DNA of 64,000 bases from Porphyromonas pogonae (GTDB lineage Bacteria > Bacteroidota > Bacteroidia > Bacteroidales > Porphyromonadaceae). The stretch is from contig NZ_CP143258.1 in the NCBI RefSeq assembly GCF_036320655.1, forward strand, positions 992,001-1,056,000, given 5' to 3'. The position numbers were made by a program, and so were the translations under genes. Positions 5,131-60,941 of this stretch are shown here, piece by piece; the first letter of the stretch is position 1, and each line of letters starts with the position of its first letter. Under the pieces are notes generated by a model, which made no database searches, was not told the origin of the DNA, and worked only from the letters and a program-made list of their open reading frames with translations.

Positions 5131-5177
5131 TCCCTCACATTCTTATCTCTATTTTTACGAAAAAATATTCTGCAAAA

Positions 5178-5265
5178 TCAACCTTTGAAATTGACCTTGT
5201 CAAACTTTGAGATCAAGCATGTCAAAGCTTGAGATTGATCTTGTCAAATTTTGAGATTGATTATC
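5178..5265. repeat. 22-bp pitch palindrome array, TCAAnnnTTGA type (4 units)
   Basis: Four units start at 5178, 5200, 5222 and 5244, exactly 22 bp apart. Each begins with an 11-bp palindromic core: TCAACCTTTGA, TCAAACTTTGA, TCAAAGCTTGA, TCAAATTTTGA. The wider consensus across units 2-4 is TGTCAAAnnTTGAGAT. The pitch matches the TARYTA arrays elsewhere in the window although the sequence differs. The 22-bp spacing would put sites on nearly the same DNA face, as expected for cooperative protein binding; no binding protein is known. Confidence 0.85.
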
Positions 5266-5382
5266 TCGATTTTTATATTCATCAAATTGCCCCCTCAGAG
5301 CTTATTGATCAAAGCCTATTCACTGCTCTAAATATCTCAGTAATATTTACCATATAGCAATCAATTAGGTGTGAACCTTATT

Positions 5383-5572: not shown

Positions 5573-5759
5573 GAGCCTGTTGCAAAAGTCAACAGTCTCG
5601 TGGATTTTGGAGGCAAAACCGACAAAAGACACTTTGACCGGGCAGAGAGGGTAAAGTGCAAGGCGCTAAGAGTGAGCACACAGGGAGTTTACTTCCGGTA
5701 AATGACCAAGTGCGAATCTCGCAAGCAACGCAGCAATTTGCCTGCTATGCAACAGTCTA
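5573..5759. mobile_element. 187-bp MITE, copy 1
   Basis: Non-autonomous element, near-identical to the copies at 19648-19834 and 60755-60941. Terminal inverted repeats are about 11 bp (GAGMCTGTTGC and GCAACAGTCTA here; GAGACTGTTGC/GCAACGGTCTC in copy 2). The direct repeat ATATG flanks it at 5568-5572 and 5760-5764, a 5-bp target duplication. The left end also folds on itself, since CAACAGTCTC follows GAGCCTGTTG within 20 bp. No transposase is encoded; the parent element is not in this window. Confidence 0.9.
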
Positions 5760-18761: not shown

Positions 18762-18793
18762 TTGACAAAGGGGTAGGCTAAGATGTATATTTG
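18762..18793 (+). promoter_or_regulatory. Cassette A promoter
   Basis: TTGACAAAGG begins at 18762 and TATATTTG lies at 18786-18793, 21 bp after the TTG. The first ten bases are shared with the promoters at 33075 and 60116, and nine of ten with that at 42541. Confidence 0.75.
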
Positions 18794-19130
18794 CAATAGG
18801 CGAGCTTTTATTTCCCTTACTTTACTTTTATTCATCCACCCACCTCATTGTTCTATTCAATATGTTTTATACTTCCCTATAATTGCTAATGTGATATCAT
18901 TCCTACCACTCATTGTTCTATTCAATATGTTTTATACAGCCTTTACCTCTCCGTTCACGCACTGCCCAGTTCAGAACATCATTATATCGCCAGATCTGCT
19001 CTTGTGTAGGTATGTCTGTCAGTACCAGTATTATATGGTTGCTGGCTTATAGTGGTTGTCGAGCTCATATAGTTATAGATACGGCATTTCGCTACAAAGC
19101 GTAAATATTTCTCACTTATACATGGATATA

Positions 19131-19175
19131 GCGAATTCGCAAGTCTTACGAGCTTGGGTATTCGCTTTTTTATTT
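19131..19175 (+). terminator. Terminator of cassette A transcript
   Basis: GCGAAT (19131-19136) pairs with ATTCGC (19160-19165); the stem continues to AAG/CTT with two mismatches and is followed by TTTTTTATTTTT. It ends 25 bp before the array. Confidence 0.7.
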
Positions 19176-19200
19176 TTATGCTTTTATAAATGTTATGGTA

Positions 19201-19344
19201 TCACTGTTAAAGCACGGTTGTATTTTAACTAAAACACCACCGTATCTTAACTAAAATACGATTGTGTTTTAACTAAAGTACTGTGACGTTTTAACTAAGA
19301 TAAAATCGTGTTTTAACTAAAGTATGGTAACGTTTTCAATTGTG
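19201..19344. repeat. 22-bp pitch palindrome array A (5 clear, 2 weak units)
   Basis: Clear 12-bp cores start at 19223, 19245, 19267, 19289 and 19311 (TTTTAACTAAAA and variants such as TCTTAACTAAAA), with weak ones at 19201 and 19333. Every step is exactly 22 bp. The core extends to an 18-bp near-palindrome GTRTTTTARYTAAAAYAC, leaving 4 variable bases between units. All clear units are in the AACT orientation. Confidence 0.92.
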
Positions 19345-19647
19345 ATGCAACATGGAGTTATGTCAGAAAGAGGGGCAATCACGCTCATAAATTATTGTAG
19401 CAATGGATACATTTTTCAGAAAGTCAACTCATATATGCAGCTATTTATTCCATAGTTTTTGGCAATGTTAGTGGGGTTACCGCTTTTTTTTTAGAAAAAG
19501 AAATGTAGGGGGTGTGTTAAATAATCCCAAAGAAAGTATTACTTGAGTATCGGGTTGTTAATTAGTGTTTGTTACATCGCTTCACCGCATGGTTGTCTGT
19601 AATGTAGTCGAGAGATAAAATATCAAGGAGCGTAGTAATGCTCTATA

Positions 19648-19834
19648 GAGACTGTTGCAAAAGTCAACAGTCTCATGGATTTTGGAGGCAAAGCCTACAA
19701 AAGACACTTTGACCGGGCAGAGAAGGTAAAGTGCAAGGCGTTAAGAGTGAGTGCACAGGGAGTTTACTTCCGGTAAATGACCAAGCGCGAATCTCGCAAG
19801 CAACGAAGCAATTGGCCTGCTATGCAACGGTCTC
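19648..19834. mobile_element. 187-bp MITE, copy 2
   Basis: Same length and nearly the same sequence as copies 1 and 3. Terminal repeats are GAGACTGTTGC and GCAACGGTCTC (one mismatch). Flanking CTATA at 19643-19647 and 19835-19839 is the 5-bp target duplication. Confidence 0.92.
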
Positions 19835-19859
19835 CTATAACAAACAATCCCTTATAGCA

Positions 19860-31544: not shown

Positions 31545-33074
31545 CTAATCTTTATACACATCTTTTAATATTTTTGTTTCATGAAAGATAGTACAGTGAG
31601 GTGCTCATGGAAAACCTTTAGACCTTTGCACATGGTATTATATCCTGGAGGTCCGCCAGATTTTACATAAGCTTTCCATGATCCCAGTCGGGCTATTATC
31701 CACGAAGCCCAAGCTAACGAATCTTCCCGAAAAGGATTATTCCCATCTTTTGATCGAGGAGACTCTTTATGTAGCATTTCCATCTCTAGATGCAGCATCT
31801 CGCACTCTTCCTCTGTAAAGAGTCGATTACATGAAACGCTCTCATTGGCAGTGTCATATTTTTTCTTTAGAGTCATACACTTTAGCACAACATAGAACCC
31901 CATTGCCATAAGCTTTTTCATCGCCATACCGTTTTCTAATTGGGCAGAGGTAATACCCAAGCCTTTGGTTTTCATTAATCTAAAGACTTCTTCGATATGC
32001 CATCGATACTTGTACCACTGTATAATCCGGAGTGCATCTTCCTTACTCTTTACTTCGTGCGAGGTGAGCAAACGCCATTCGATAGGCTTTTCACCCTCGG
32101 GAACGCTACCGGCATCTTCTCTGACATGAACGTAGTGGCAGCTAATACTCTTTGAAACATCGTCTTTACCATTACCTGTGTTGCCGAAAGTGACTGGTGC
32201 ATATTTGACGTCGAACAACGCCTTGCGAGGTTTACGCCCATTTTGCCTAGTGATCTGGGATGTGCAACTGAAACTAACCGGTTGTTTATCCAACCATTCG
32301 ATGATACGTTCTTTTTTAGATTTTGAATCTCCCTCGAGAAGCCGATTGTGAATGGAGCGAATCAGAAAATCACATCCTTCTTCCAACGTCTTACTCATGA
32401 CGGTGTAGATATCATTCTCACGATCACCCACCATGGTTTTACGTAAATTTTCTGGCAAATTCGCGTTTGCCATTTTAGCCGATGCAGCCCAACGAGACGA
32501 TTCTTTCTCATTAAATCCAAGTTTTTTACGCAGCTGTTTCTTCTGGCGTGCGTCTTTGCGATCTCTGTTATACAACTCAATCGAACTATAACCCATAGGG
32601 GTTTCCGTCTCAGGGTCAAAGAGCAAGCAAGGATGAGCAAAGATGCTGTACTCCGAACTCTTGTTGGTTCCATACCCATAATCTTCGTCATTAGGGTTTA
32701 ATCTGCCACTGATATTATCAAAAGTAAACTCTGTAGTATCCTGAATGCAAAGCACATGCTTAAGATCTTTGCAACATTGTGCGCTATTTGCGGTAACGCA
32801 GTCCAAAAACTGATCCATTTTCCATCTTTTATTATTTAGGAGTCGATAAGCCCCCTGCCTTTCTGCATGATTCTTAAAACAACTGTTCATGACCCCGTCC
32901 ACACGACGTGTCATTGCTGCCAAGACGAAATATAATCGCTTAGCGATACGTGCATCTTTTATGACGCCTGAAAATGTTAAGTTACATATATAAAGATACG
33001 AAAAAACAACGAGAATACAATGCAAGAAATTGAATAAAAGTATGTTAAATCGTTGAGATATGTGTATAGATTAG
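31545..33074 (-). mobile_element. Complete IS4-type insertion sequence (Tn5/IS50-like)
   Basis: 1530-bp element. Ends carry imperfect inverted repeats: left CTAATCTTTATACACATCT, right (inward) CTAATCTATACACATATCT. The direct repeat TTGACAAAG flanks it at 31536-31544 and 33075-33083, a 9-bp target duplication, matching IS4/Tn5-like transposition. One transposase gene fills it and is intact. The target is the TTGACAAAG of the cassette B promoter, so the insertion leaves the promoter with a duplicated copy. Confidence 0.9.
31565..33025 (-). CDS. IS4 family transposase (Tn5-like DDE)
   Basis: Uninterrupted 486-codon transposase. DDE residues are placed at LCIQDTTEF (first Asp), MVGDRENDIY (second Asp) and YKYRWHIEEVFRLMK, which fits the IS4 signature Y-(2)-R-(3)-E-(6)-K. 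The QGAYRLLNN segment matches the N-terminal region of Tn5 transposase. The open frame starts with TTG at 33025; no ATG precedes the conserved DARIAKR block, so the true start is uncertain (first ATGs, near 32911, would remove it). Confidence 0.9.
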   Translation of the reverse strand: MHCILVVFSYLYICNLTFSGVIKDARIAKRLYFVLAAMTRRVDGVMNSCFKNHAERQGAYRLLNNKRWKMDQFLDCVTANSAQCCKDLKHVLCIQDTTEFTFDNISGRLNPNDEDYGYGTNKSSEYSIFAHPCLLFDPETETPMGYSSIELYNRDRKDARQKKQLRKKLGFNEKESSRWAASAKMANANLPENLRKTMVGDRENDIYTVMSKTLEEGCDFLIRSIHNRLLEGDSKSKKERIIEWLDKQPVSFSCTSQITRQNGRKPRKALFDVKYAPVTFGNTGNGKDDVSKSISCHYVHVREDAGSVPEGEKPIEWRLLTSHEVKSKEDALRIIQWYKYRWHIEEVFRLMKTKGLGITSAQLENGMAMKKLMAMGFYVVLKCMTLKKKYDTANESVSCNRLFTEEECEMLHLEMEMLHKESPRSKDGNNPFREDSLAWASWIIARLGSWKAYVKSGGPPGYNTMCKGLKVFHEHLTVLSFMKQKY

Positions 33075-33106
33075 TTGACAAAGGGGGGCTGAATGTTGTA
33101 TCTTTG
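33075..33106 (+). promoter_or_regulatory. Cassette B promoter, -33 region at the IS edge
   Basis: TTGACAAAGG begins at 33075, the first base after the IS, and TATCTTTG lies at 33099-33106, 21 bp after the TTG. The target duplication restored the -33 element, but everything upstream of it is now IS sequence. Confidence 0.75.
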
Positions 33107-33169: not shown

Positions 33170-33412
33170 ATGATACTTGCTATTCTAAGGATTCTTAGTT
33201 TGATTATTATATCGCTTTTGATTATTGCCGTGCAACCTATCGCTCTTATAGGCTGTACTCTGTGCCATTTTTGTCGAATGAATAGGGAAAAGATGCAAAG
33301 TATCCGTTGTTATGTCTCAACGATTTCAGCAACTACACTCTTAGTGTCGATGAAGAGCCGGGTAAATAGAGTAGCAGGCTATTTGAAATACGGTACTACG
33401 AAAGATGCTTGA
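33170..33412 (+). CDS. Possible small hydrophobic protein of cassette B
   Basis: 80 codons from ATG 33170. The first ~30 residues are almost entirely hydrophobic (MILAILRILSLIIISLLIIA), followed by a CTLCHFC cluster and a basic tail. It starts about 55 bp after the expected transcription start, so it could be translated. Not similar to any family I know; the loci at 42599 and 60177 carry unrelated short ORFs, so coding status is uncertain. Confidence 0.35.
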   Translation: MILAILRILSLIIISLLIIAVQPIALIGCTLCHFCRMNREKMQSIRCYVSTISATTLLVSMKSRVNRVAGYLKYGTTKDA

Positions 33413-33559: not shown

Positions 33560-33703
33560 TTACAGTTAAGGTAGAGTTGTATCTTAGTTAAAACACTTTT
33601 GTATTTTAGTTAAAACACCAAAACATTTTAGTTAAAACGTTTTCGTATCTTAGTTAAAACACGGAATCATTTTAACTAAAGTACGGAGATACTTTCGCTG
33701 ATG
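33560..33703. repeat. 22-bp pitch palindrome array B (5 clear, 2 weak units)
   Basis: Clear units start at 33582, 33604, 33626, 33648 and 33670; weak ones at 33560 and 33692. Four clear units read TYTTAGTTAAAA (the reverse complement of the array A core), the last TTTTAACTAAAG. Spacing is exactly 22 bp. The full form GTATTTTAGTTAAAACAC is seen at 33601-33618. The gap from the array to the next gene holds TGATTCCTAAA at 33726-33736, also found after array C. Confidence 0.92.
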
Positions 33704-37557: not shown

Positions 37558-37627
37558 GTAAAAATGATAGAGTTAAACTTGTTTTTATTGATCGTCTTGT
37601 CCCGAGACGACTCTATATATCTCATAA

Positions 37628-37817
37628 TGGTTTGGCAGGTCTCCTGACTCAGCGTTTTGCGGAAGAGCCTTCCCATCCGTGGTTTTGCGGACAGTGGCTT
37701 GTAGAGATTCTCCCCTTGATTGCGTGATGATGCAAGCAAGCGCATTACAGTAGCGGGCACTGCTCCGGTATCTAACCGGATTCCCTTGAACAACGAATCC
37801 CGAATGGACTCATCATT
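37628..37817 (-). promoter_or_regulatory. Cobalamin riboswitch
   Basis: On the minus strand the conserved elements occur in order: AAGGGAATCCGG, GCCCGCTACTGTAA, a peripheral region with GATGGGAAGGC, and the B12 box AGTCAGGAGACC with CTGCC. This is the AdoCbl-class layout, ending 71 bp before the TonB receptor start. The expression platform is probably in those last bases and may occlude the start; no T-rich terminator is visible. Confidence 0.95.
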
Positions 37818-37828
37818 ACCAAACAGTG

Positions 37829-37836
37829 CAAAAGTA
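37829..37836 (-). promoter_or_regulatory. -7 box of the riboswitch-btuB transcript
   Basis: On the minus strand TACTTTTG fits TAnnTTTG; transcription would start near 37822, just before the riboswitch. No TTTG is seen at the expected distance. Confidence 0.55.
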
Positions 37837-37933
37837 CAATAAATAATTATATGATAGGTTTTTATTGTGCTCCAATTTTCAAGTCCAGTTTGTTTGAAAA
37901 TAGCATTTGCACGGAGATATTACCATAAAACGA

Positions 37934-42540: not shown

Positions 42541-42572
42541 TTGACAAAGGGTAGGGTGATGTTGTATATTTG
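42541..42572 (+). promoter_or_regulatory. Cassette C promoter
   Basis: TTGACAAAGG at 42541 and TATATTTG at 42565-42572, 21 bp after the TTG. The GTGATGTTGTAT stretch between the boxes is also found in the cassette D promoter. Confidence 0.75.
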
Positions 42573-42598: not shown

Positions 42599-42865
42599 AT
42601 GTCATTATACTTATTCATATGTAATACCATTATTTCCCTTTTCTTGACGATTAGGGTCATTGAATCTATTGGGAGCTCCCCTCTAATTACCTACTATCAT
42701 GTAGTATGTGCGGGTAATGCATTGTGCTCTATATTTTACCTCTATGTAGTATGCTACTTGCCTGAGATAAAGTGGCGACCTAGGCCGCTTTACAAACGAT
42801 GCCCGCCGGGTATAATGACATATCGGCCTGTGACAGGGTACTCTCATCCATATCTTTTCTCCTAA
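42599..42865 (+). CDS. Possible small protein of cassette C
   Basis: 88 codons from ATG 42599, starting about 20 bp after the expected transcription start. The first ~55 residues are hydrophobic and aromatic (MSLYLFICNTIISLFLTIRV), then a proline- and arginine-rich tail. It resembles the cassette B ORF only in having a hydrophobic N-terminal segment, so it is a weak coding call. Confidence 0.35.
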   Translation: MSLYLFICNTIISLFLTIRVIESIGSSPLITYYHVVCAGNALCSIFYLYVVCYLPEIKWRPRPLYKRCPPGIMTYRPVTGYSHPYLFS

Positions 42866-42984
42866 GCACCGTCTTTGCTCGTAGCCGGAGTATTAATCAG
42901 CCTTAAATTTTGCTCCCCGGTTCTATACGTATTCCTTGTGACGGAGCGTGCTAAAGCAACATTCTTTCCCAAAAAGCACATGTT

Positions 42985-43128
42985 TCTTAGCTAAAATGCG
43001 ACTGTATTTTAGTTAAAACTCGGCGGTGGTTTAACTAAAATGTTTTCATGCTTTAACTAAAATAATTTGGTGTTATAACTAAAATGTTTTGGTGTTACAA
43101 CTAAAGTATCGAAACGTTTTAGTTAAGC
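42985..43128. repeat. 22-bp pitch palindrome array C (7 units)
   Basis: Units start at 42985, 43007, 43029, 43051, 43073, 43095 and 43117, exactly 22 bp apart. Both orientations occur (TTTTAGTTAAAA at 43007; GTTTAACTAAAA at 43029). All seven share TARYTA or a close variant (AGCTAA at 42988, CAACTA at 43098). No terminator is seen before this array, unlike A, B and D. Confidence 0.92.
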
Positions 43129-43475
43129 CACTCTAGCTTTTCAGCTGTGATACATATGCCCCTATATTGGGTGCGGAATGCTGTGCAAATTGTTTTTTGA
43201 TTCCTAAATATTTATAAATAAATCAAGAGTACATTCGCTCTCAATATATCCTTTAAGAAAAATAAGATTTGAATATAATTTAATTGGCTTGTGGTTAATG
43301 CATTATAAAAAAGTTTTTCATTCTGTCATGTGGGGTTATGCTGTCATAATGATTGGGATATTGCCGATATGGTGACTTTTTGTTATATCTTGCAGTAGAG
43401 GGTAAATCAAAATCGGATATCCTTTCCTGTAAAGATTATTGCCTGTCAGAATAAGCTTTACCGCCCAACAATAGT
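43129..43475. other. Gene-free remainder after array C
   Basis: About 350 bp of AT-rich DNA. A TTTTCAGCTGTGATACA stretch just after the array resembles TTTTCAATTGTGATGCA after array A, and TGATTCCTAAA at 43198-43208 is shared with the DNA after array B. No gene is seen. Confidence 0.5.
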
Positions 43476-55490: not shown

Positions 55491-55757
55491 ATGAACAAAG
55501 CAGAATTTATCTCAGAAGTGGCTATGAAAGCCGGTATGACTAAAGCCGATGCTCAAAGAGCAATCAACGCATTTACTGAAGTAGTCGGTGAGCAAATGAA
55601 AGCAGGTGAAAAAGTAACTTTGCTAGGTTTCGGTACTTTCTCAGTAACCGAAAAATCAGCTCGCAAAGGTATAAACCCCAAAACTAAAGCTGTAATCACT
55701 ATTCCTGCACGTAAAGCTGTGAAATTTAAAGCAGGTTCTGCTCTTGATATGAAATAA
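55491..55757 (+). CDS. hup: HU-type DNA-binding protein
   Basis: 88 aa. The HU/IHF fold begins [22 protein letters not shown]; the beta arm carries [20 protein letters not shown] and ends [10 protein letters not shown]. The R-x-G-x-NP arm-tip motif is present. A nucleoid protein, expressed from its own strong promoter with a shared downstream terminator. Confidence 0.95.
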
Positions 55758-60115: not shown

Positions 60116-60147
60116 TTGACAAAGGGGGGTGTGATGTTGTATCTTTG
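60116..60147 (+). promoter_or_regulatory. Cassette D promoter
   Basis: TTGACAAAGG at 60116 and TATCTTTG at 60140-60147, 21 bp after the TTG. Transcription would start near 60154. Confidence 0.75.
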
Positions 60148-60176: not shown

Positions 60177-60305
60177 ATGAATGCTCTGAAAAATGAAATA
60201 TTCCACACTATACTCTGTGGTGAGAAGCACCTTTCTGTGTCTGTTACAACGAGGCAGTATAAGTCCCGGAACTTACATTTTGTCAAAATCAGACTCGCAC
60301 CGTAA
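60177..60305 (+). CDS. Possible 42-aa protein of cassette D
   Basis: ATG 60177 opens 42 codons (MNALKNEIFHTILCGEKHLS start), about 23 bp after the expected transcription start and within the terminated transcript. Not hydrophobic, unlike the ORFs of cassettes B and C. Short and unsupported by any family, so it may be noncoding. Confidence 0.3.
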   Translation: MNALKNEIFHTILCGEKHLSVSVTTRQYKSRNLHFVKIRLAP

Positions 60306-60352
60306 AATATCAAATTGTCAGAATGTAGGAAATATCTATTAAAATCATGAAC

Positions 60353-60396
60353 AAAAGCCGTATAGAGGATATTTGATCCTCTATACGGCTTTTTTA
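60353..60396 (+). terminator. Terminator of cassette D transcript
   Basis: A perfect 18-bp stem (60353-60370 with 60376-60393) with a 5-nt loop, ending in TTTTTTATT. It is 23 bp before array D. Confidence 0.95.
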
Positions 60397-60418: not shown

Positions 60419-60540
60419 TTTCTTAGTTACGTTTCATTATTTTTCTAACTATATGATGATATTTTTCTAACTACGTCATTCCGGTTTCTCAGTTACAAAA
60501 ATAATGAAACGTAACTAAGAAAATAATGCCGCTTAGTTAC
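60419..60540. repeat. 22-bp pitch palindrome array D (6 units), internally mirrored
   Basis: Units start at 60419, 60441, 60463, 60485, 60507 and 60529, exactly 22 bp apart. Cores are CTTAGTTAC or TCTAACTA variants, sharing TARYTA or CAGTTA with arrays A-C but without the TTTT/AAAA flanks. The first unit and its right flank (60418-60444) are repeated in inverted form at 60497-60523, 27 bp without mismatch. Confidence 0.9.
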
Positions 60541-60754
60541 AAAAATATCAAGAGGGTTTTTAGTCCACTTCTCATTGTCTTAAAGATTTTATTTGGTGGT
60601 AATATGTGTCATTTGGATTTGTTTTGGCGGTGTTATGTATCTATTTGGTATTTTGTAAATATGGACTAAGGGGGGGGATAAAGCAAAATGAAACCAACCT
60701 ATTGGTTTGGTTTATCTGCTACAAGCTCGGTTTAGGTAGTATTTATTGCTTATT

Positions 60755-60941
60755 GAGACTGTTGCAAAAGTCAACAGTCTTGTGGATTTTGGAGGCAAAG
60801 CCGACAAAAGACACTTTGACCGGGCAGAGAGAGTAAAGTGCAAGGCGCTAAGAGAGAGTGCACAGGGAGTTTACTTCCGGTAAATGACCAAGCGCGAATC
60901 TCGCAAGCAACGAAGCAATTTGCCTGCTATGCAACGGTTTC
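60755..60941. mobile_element. 187-bp MITE, copy 3
   Basis: Same 187-bp length and near-identical sequence as copies 1 and 2; ends GAGACTGTTGC and GCAACGGTTTC. Flanking TTATT at 60750-60754 and 60942-60946 is the 5-bp target duplication. Confidence 0.92.

What the first reader, a model, noticed from the sequence alone, without database searches (positions are those of the whole stretch)
18762..19344. Cassette A: a promoter, a terminated short transcript and a 22-bp palindrome array, one of four such cassettes
Seen directly: TTGACAAAGG...TATATTTG at 18762, a stem-loop with T tract at 19131 and an array from 19201. The same order (promoter beginning TTGACAAAGG, 250-450 bp, array with TARYTA cores) recurs at 33075, 42541 and 60116; a terminator just before the array is visible in three of four. 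The promoter prefix is shared but the transcripts are not obviously related, and only arrays A-C share the extended palindrome. I know of no element with this combination. It could be a dispersed regulatory RNA, an anchor site for a nucleoid protein, or an unrecognised mobile or selfish unit.
Basis: partly seen in the sequence, partly recalled or inferred. Interest (0 to 1): 0.82.

Follow-up and report, generated by a model that had tools for sequence, protein, structure and literature searches.

The report
Dispersed 22-bp arrays paired with HU-like genes
The four 'cassettes' belong to a set of about a hundred scattered units in this bacterial chromosome, each built around a row of DNA sites spaced two helix turns apart, and such rows also sit beside genes for HU-like chromosome proteins here and in related species, which suggests paired protein-and-address systems for organising the chromosome.

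Summary
TTGACAAAGG occurs 91 times in this genome (reversed-pattern control 4). 75 of the 91 have a Bacteroidetes-type -7 box; a 22-bp-period array follows 63 of those 75 and precedes 0 of 75. None of the other 16 has an array of its own. A, B and C carry array type 1, D type 3; a type 2 and two smaller families also exist. The promoter string occurs in other Bacteroidota without such arrays, and types 4 and 5 are dispersed without it, so the array is the element.

The arrays point to HU-HIG proteins (PF18291). Here 5 of 6 long HU-HIG genes have a 22-bp array beside them, each with a different core, one of the five seen only by eye. In 69 HU-HIG loci of relatives, 18 such arrays lie within 800 bp of the gene, against 1 in 442 kb around. 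An array fitting the P. gingivalis 'BrickBuilt' consensus lies upstream of a HU-HIG gene and at 19 loci, the published number. I propose that HU-HIG paralogs bind paralog-specific phased arrays. Binding is inferred, not shown.

The parts
18762..18793 (+). Cassette A promoter (TTGACA ... TATATTTG)
18794..19130 (+). Cassette A transcribed region; no clear ORF; holds a roughly 30-bp direct duplication
19131..19175 (+). Cassette A intrinsic-terminator-like stem-loop
19200..19345 (.). Cassette A type-1 22-bp array
33075..33106 (+). Cassette B promoter; an IS4-like element (ORF 31565-33025, -) abuts it upstream
33170..33412 (+). Cassette B small hydrophobic ORF (80 aa), no family match
33577..33690 (.). 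Cassette B type-1 array
42541..42572 (+). Cassette C promoter
42599..42865 (+). Cassette C small hydrophobic ORF (88 aa), no Pfam match
42960..43130 (.). Cassette C type-1 array
60116..60147 (+). Cassette D promoter
60177..60305 (+). Cassette D small ORF (42 aa)
60273..60320 (.). M1 motif pair, 35 bp apart
60353..60394 (+). Cassette D terminator
60420..60560 (.). Cassette D type-3 array (arms in opposite orientation)
5165..5274 (.). Type-4 22-bp array without promoter; by eye the same family as the array upstream of the HU-HIG gene at genome 217701

Best explanation
Each array is a row of sites (commonly six in types 1 and 3) set 22 bp, two helical turns, apart; the sites are clearly palindromic in type 1, weakly in type 3, not shown so in type 2. 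I propose that an array is the cognate binding address of one HU-HIG protein (HU domain plus a proline/glycine-rich tail). SHOWN: HU-HIG genes in this genome and in relatives often carry 22-bp (sometimes 21- or 23-bp) arrays directly beside them, with different cores for different paralogs; arrays of these families are dispersed over the chromosome. Types 1, 2 and 3 are mostly packaged with a consensus-like promoter, a short poorly conserved transcript and, in most type-3 and half of type-1 cases, a terminator. INFERRED: HU-HIG dimers bind adjacent sites on one face of the helix and form a cooperative bent or wrapped filament. The array at the HU-HIG gene autoregulates it. Dispersed arrays of one type act as anchors that compact or bridge loci, and the short transcript beside the array helps set a topological boundary.
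For: Own genome: HU-HIG gene 527326 sits in a cassette with the same promoter, terminator and type-1 array; 2365287 has a type-3 array; 217701 type 4; 1481015 type 5; 2047351 a GTAC-core array seen by eye. Types 4 and 5 are also found at other loci. Relatives: in 69 HU-HIG loci, 18 period-22 arrays near the gene (135 kb) against 1 far (442 kb); of the other periods only 21 (11 near, 0 far) and 23 (6 near, 8 far) exceed 2. In 74 genes the best neighbouring period, where its score is at least 0.55, is 22 in 25, 21 in 9, 23 in 5 and another in 5; 24 of the 25 are upstream. BrickBuilt: the 23-bp array upstream of HU-HIG gene L209 fits the published consensus and lies at 19 loci, the published number. 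Across units the core is conserved and the spacer is not. Leader plus ORF is less conserved (0.58-0.72) than promoter and array in 5 of 6 diverged pairs; in the sixth one array is cut by an IS. The HU-HIGs of types 1 and 3, whose cores share TARYTA, are the most similar pair among the six (41%; other pairs at most 33%).
Against: No binding data. Classical HU binds DNA with little sequence preference (recalled). Type 2 has no matched HU-HIG gene, and HU-HIG 2847321 has no visible array. 52 of 69 HU-HIG loci in relatives had no period-22 array at the 0.60 threshold within 800 bp. Of the 39 period 21-23 cases, by eye four are 7-bp repeats, one looks coding and one is a leader duplication. Protein similarity and array similarity correlate only weakly (rho 0.23, 0 of 500 permutations; driven by near-orthologs), and two HU-HIGs 91-92% identical have unlike arrays. 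The arrays also fit a mobile-element history.
Confidence: 0.62

Rival explanations
1. The units are non-autonomous mobile elements (MITE-like) that multiplied in this genome; arrays and promoter are passengers or sites for a transposition protein, with no host function.
For: Copies are homologous over discrete units with unrelated flanks: one type-3 pair from 1 base before TTGACA to the array end, two type-2 pairs starting at or about 5 bases before the left M1 motif. Arrays in 0 of 40 relatives by blastn at E 0.001. Type-2 ends look by eye like imperfect inverted repeats.
Against: No terminal inverted repeats or target duplications seen for type 3. A pure mobile-element view does not predict arrays beside HU-HIG genes across species, nor cores kept at 22 bp while the spacers diverge.
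Confidence: 0.22
2. Arrays are operators of an unrelated dimeric regulator that controls a regulon of small peptides or small RNAs driven by the strong promoters.
For: Consensus-like promoter, frequent terminator, A-rich conserved start region of a short ORF, weak codon-position signal.
Against: Where a terminator is found the array lies downstream of it; peptides are not conserved in sequence (frame-0 score -0.67 against -0.76 and -0.84); arrays exist without such transcripts.
Confidence: 0.09
3. Ordinary minisatellites made by replication slippage, without function.
For: Tandem, intergenic, mostly AT-rich; one long type-1 array does contain near-identical 44-bp duplications.
Against: 62 arrays of period 22 against 0 or 1 at periods 19-21, 23-25, 31 and 33 in the same DNA; most units of an array differ outside the core; same period beside HU-HIG genes in other species.
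Confidence: 0.04

Closest known systems
BrickBuilt minisatellite/MITE of Porphyromonas gingivalis (PMC4596501)
   Same: Dispersed intergenic array of short phased repeats, several loci, promoter activity; one copy beside a HU-HIG gene
   Different: 23-bp unit of other sequence, leader and tail with IS5-like terminal repeats; here 22 bp, several families, promoter cassettes. The parts read name a flanking 'DNA-binding protein (PF00216)' but propose no protein for the repeat
MatP/matS or ParB/parS-type dispersed address systems (recalled)
   Same: One protein, many dispersed palindromic sites, regional bias on the chromosome
   Different: Those use single sites; here arrays of several phased sites and several paralogous protein/array pairs
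REP/BIME intergenic elements and ISs that target them (recalled)
   Same: Dispersed palindromic intergenic units that serve as IS targets
   Different: Much longer, with promoter and phased array; no REP-type structure was tested
Plasmid iterons (recalled)
   Same: About 22-bp phased tandem sites
   Different: Chromosomal and at about a hundred loci; no replication initiator was looked for

Membership tests
BrickBuilt (P. gingivalis) | 23-nt repeat of consensus AGAYCATARTATCCTCTCRTRTG | tested here: not met
   Arrays here have 22-bp period and other cores
BrickBuilt (P. gingivalis) | Dispersed intergenic array with a copy beside a HU-HIG gene | tested here: met
   Here; in G025, taken to be P. 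gingivalis
MITE | Terminal inverted repeats | tested here: inconclusive
   Type 2 ends carry imperfect inverted M1 motifs by eye; type 3 ends show none
MITE | Target-site duplication | tested here: inconclusive
   None seen at the boundaries of five copy pairs; two pairs have an IS at one edge of one partner
CRISPR array | Repeats separated by unique spacers | tested here: not met
   Contiguous 22-bp units with a few variable bases between cores; cas genes not searched
HU-HIG protein partner | PF18291 domain above cut-off | tested here: met
   Three own proteins scanned: 89, 65.7 and 63 bits, cut-off 26.2; all eight own matches over cut-off, two of them plain HU
HU-HIG address array | Protein binds the array | not testable with these tools
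   Needs EMSA, DAP-seq or ChIP
Known structured RNA | Rfam match in the cassettes | tested here: not met
   Only a cobalamin riboswitch and a tRNA in the window at gathering threshold; cassettes outside the window not scanned

The most novel reading that the evidence does not exclude
HU-HIG paralogs and their arrays form a multi-colour chromosome address code. Each paralog gathers its own set of portable array elements, different colours favour the origin and terminus halves, and the short transcribed unit beside each array is a built-in boundary (insulator) whose RNA sequence does not matter.
Probability: 0.25. Interest if true: 0.92.

Novelty: new variant of a known kind. Interest (0 to 1): 0.78.

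Why it matters
HU-superfamily proteins are known as largely non-specific DNA benders (recalled). A paralogous branch, expanded in this genus (3-17 PF18291 matches per genome in 26 genomes, a count that includes plain HU), appears to come with locus-specific, helically phased target arrays. If true, it gives a function and a readable target code to HU-HIG, would explain the BrickBuilt repeats of P. gingivalis, and offers a natural set of array-binding proteins that can be tested with simple binding assays.

Tried and rejected
Promoter as defining element: rejected, since the same string stands without arrays in other Bacteroidota (one of the six genomes is titled Flavobacteriales) and is absent from types 4 and 5. 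Mobile replicon or phage origin: promoter pattern 0 in viral contigs; cassette A 0 in plasmids and cassette D 0 in phages by blastn. Neighbour-gene regulation: orientation of neighbours is mixed, and neighbours are not paralogous apart from one group of 9, IS genes and three groups of 2-3. Conserved peptide: weak signal only. Empty-site test at cassette A: the genes upstream of rsmD are conserved, but the gene downstream of the cassette was not found in 11 relatives' flanks of at most 1.5 kb, so inconclusive. Literature: searches gave no paper; some gave papers that look unrelated from the listing; one gave three papers with 'BrickBuilt'. Holdings are limited to open licences.

Dropped rows: L173 had no HU-HIG protein recovered (74 of 75 used). 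In one search the Mantel test used 28 proteins with strong arrays, after removing L208, L215 and L183 by hand and adding L120 (its array typed in) and L122 by hand. One search left out 7 cassettes, and 63 of 68 gave an ORF. One search dropped 2 of 25 type-3 cassettes and printed 12 of the 23. One search scanned one locus twice and one array in two pieces. Type assignment is by a simple script; some cassettes (e.g. 257366) look mixed.

Full report
OBSERVATION. The window lies at 992001-1056000 of a 2.916-Mb single-contig genome. The four cassettes are present as described. Across the genome TTGACAAAGG occurs 91 times against 4 for the reversed pattern. 75 of the 91 carry TAnnTTT[AG], with a consensus near CTTGACAAAGGGGGGTnnGATGTTGTATCTTTGT. 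In 63 of these 75 the best period from 15 to 35 in the downstream kilobase is 22; of the 16 sites without a -7 box, 2 scored but both are a neighbour's array; shuffles gave 2 of 750. Upstream of the same 75 promoters the count is 0. Period 22 stands alone in this DNA: 62 arrays, against 0 at 19, 20, 21, 24, 25, 31 and 33, 1 at 23, and 38 at the double period 44.

FAMILIES. Type 1 has consensus gTaTTTTAGTTAAAAcAc (19 promoter-linked cassettes, one of them the HU-HIG gene; A, B and C belong here), type 2 gACtTATC.TAtacgGtC (14), type 3 tttCtTAGTTAgaAAA (25; D belongs here); 17 of the 75 were not typed by the script. Six units is the commonest length in types 1 and 3; in type 2 three and six tie. 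Palindromy about the core axis is clear for type 1 (0.57 of positions, other axes at most 0.41), slight for type 3 (0.40 against at most 0.35) and not evident for type 2. Blast lists, each from few queries and with capped candidates, give 32, 36 and 40 loci for types 1, 2 and 3 (as collected), so roughly a hundred arrays. Of 70 arrays scanned, 50 have the exact promoter, 11 a relaxed one and 9 none.

ANATOMY. Type 3: first array core 305-385 bp after the start of the promoter in 24 of 25; a terminator in 23 of 25, ending 27-32 bp before the first core in 17 of those 23. A motif M1 (TATCATTTTGTCA and relatives) occurs in pairs 35 or 36 bp apart in type 1 and 3 cassettes (12 pairs), and at -70 to -76 of the promoter in 15 others, 8 typed as type 2 and 7 untyped. 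Type 2 also has a downstream block with nearly fixed spacing, including CTTATTTAGACTTTGTACAAATAAG, and ends near a second M1. In six diverged copy pairs, leader plus ORF was the least conserved of five parts in 4; in one pair the terminator was lower (0.61 against 0.64), and in one M1 (0.69) and an IS-cut array (0.37) were lower than leader plus ORF (0.72). Boundaries of five copy pairs: one type-3 pair matches from -1 to the array end, another from -15 to just past it; a type-1 pair from -1 to +677, beyond the array, with an IS at one left edge; two type-2 pairs from -78 and -73/-74, at the left M1, to just past the right M1 in one and to an IS edge in the other.

THE PROTEIN LINK. PF18291 finds eight loci here: six long HU-HIG genes and two plain HU genes, one of them in the window near 55491. 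Four of the six show a period-22 array by scan, a fifth by eye with steps 22, 22, 23, 22, 22, and 2847321 shows none. Their cores differ, and four of them match dispersed families 1, 3, 4 and 5. The 527326 gene sits in a cassette of the same layout as the small-ORF cassettes. In relatives, 69 HU-HIG loci were examined: 18 period-22 arrays lie within 800 bp of the gene (17 loci), 1 elsewhere in 442 kb; period 21 gave 11 near and 0 far, period 23 gave 6 near and 8 far. At a looser threshold 44 of 74 genes have a neighbouring repeat; its period is 21-23 in 39, but by eye four of these are 7-bp repeats, one looks coding and one is a leader duplication. One genus member (G025) has a 23-bp array directly upstream of HU-HIG gene L209. 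It fits the published BrickBuilt consensus and, grouping 89 matches by hand, occurs at 19 loci, two of them with one short match each. The paper reports 19 BrickBuilt copies and lists a DNA-binding protein (PF00216), PGN_0872, beside BrickBuilt_14; I did not match the loci one by one, and that G025 is P. gingivalis is inferred. Of that paper I read the abstract, sections 5 and 10, part 1 of section 7, and search passages; none proposes a HU protein for the repeat, and 'nucleoid' does not occur in its text. Of PMC5771137 I saw passages only; of PMC10969869 the search listing only.

CHROMOSOMAL PATTERN. GC skew of the fetched stretches flips roughly near 0.38 Mb and 2.0 Mb, and dnaA is at 0.13 Mb. 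In the blast lists type 1 is 22 of 32 and type 2 is 25 of 36 in the origin half, type 3 is 28 of 40 in the terminus half; label permutation gives 14 and 6 of 20000 for type 1 and type 2 against type 3. Alone, the Rayleigh values are 0.094, 0.03 and 0.008 for types 1, 2 and 3. In the overlapping promoter-centred set type 1 against type 3 gives 32 of 20000 and type 2 against type 3 gives 877 of 20000; there type 3 itself is 14 terminus and 11 origin. The bias is modest, and local spread from a founder would explain it too.

MECHANISM. Shown: phased arrays, their families, their link to HU-HIG genes, and the repeated layout. Inferred: cooperative HU-HIG binding, autoregulation, and anchoring or boundary function. 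A period of two helical turns, diverged spacers and conserved cores fit a protein filament on one face of DNA. Because the transcript sequence is poorly conserved while promoter and array are kept, I read the transcript as mattering by being made, not by what it encodes; this is the weakest step.

LIMITS. No binding was tested, the type-2 partner is unknown, and near-identical HU-HIGs with different arrays warn that specificity may be loose or quick to change.

Noticed in passing
window 31565-33025 and genome 498285, 1855013, 1976985: A 1.47-kb IS4-like element abuts the cassette promoter at the same point in four cassettes, in both orientations. The same end also stands before CTTGGAG near HU-HIG L119, so its target may be wider than the cassette.
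   Followed up: partly
genome 1741466, 2570500, 2695185 (also near 1154594 and 2841040): Another IS (end TCGCCCCTTAAAATCG or close to it) sits inside or beside the arrays, apparently at the TARYTA core.
   Followed up: partly
window 5574-5755, 19645-19840, 60755-60940: A roughly 190-bp MITE (GAGACTGTTGCAAAAGTC...), also inserted in several cassettes.
   Followed up: no
type-3 arrays, e.g. genome 1855013, 1084069, 1214853: Left and right arms form long inverted repeats that include the variable spacers, so spacers stay complementary although they differ between copies (seen by eye).
   Followed up: no
L119 (genome 2047351): A HU-HIG gene next to a reverse-transcriptase-like ORF, by eye.
   Followed up: no
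L123 (genome 2847321): A HU-HIG gene with the cassette promoter but no array, followed by an amidase-like ORF (by eye), an arrangement I recall from Bacteroides.
   Followed up: no
L175, L177, L179, L183: 7-bp tandem repeats (TCTAACC-like) beside HU-HIG genes in several relatives.
   Followed up: no
window 37617-37838: Cobalamin riboswitch on the minus strand.
   Followed up: no
genome 763387-763745: Longest type-1 array seen (about 15 units), partly made of near-identical 44-bp duplications.
   Followed up: partly
L285 (genome 2199000-2203500): Two type-1 array pieces about 1.1 kb apart with a transposase-like ORF of 302 aa between them (by eye), as if one array had been split.
   Followed up: no
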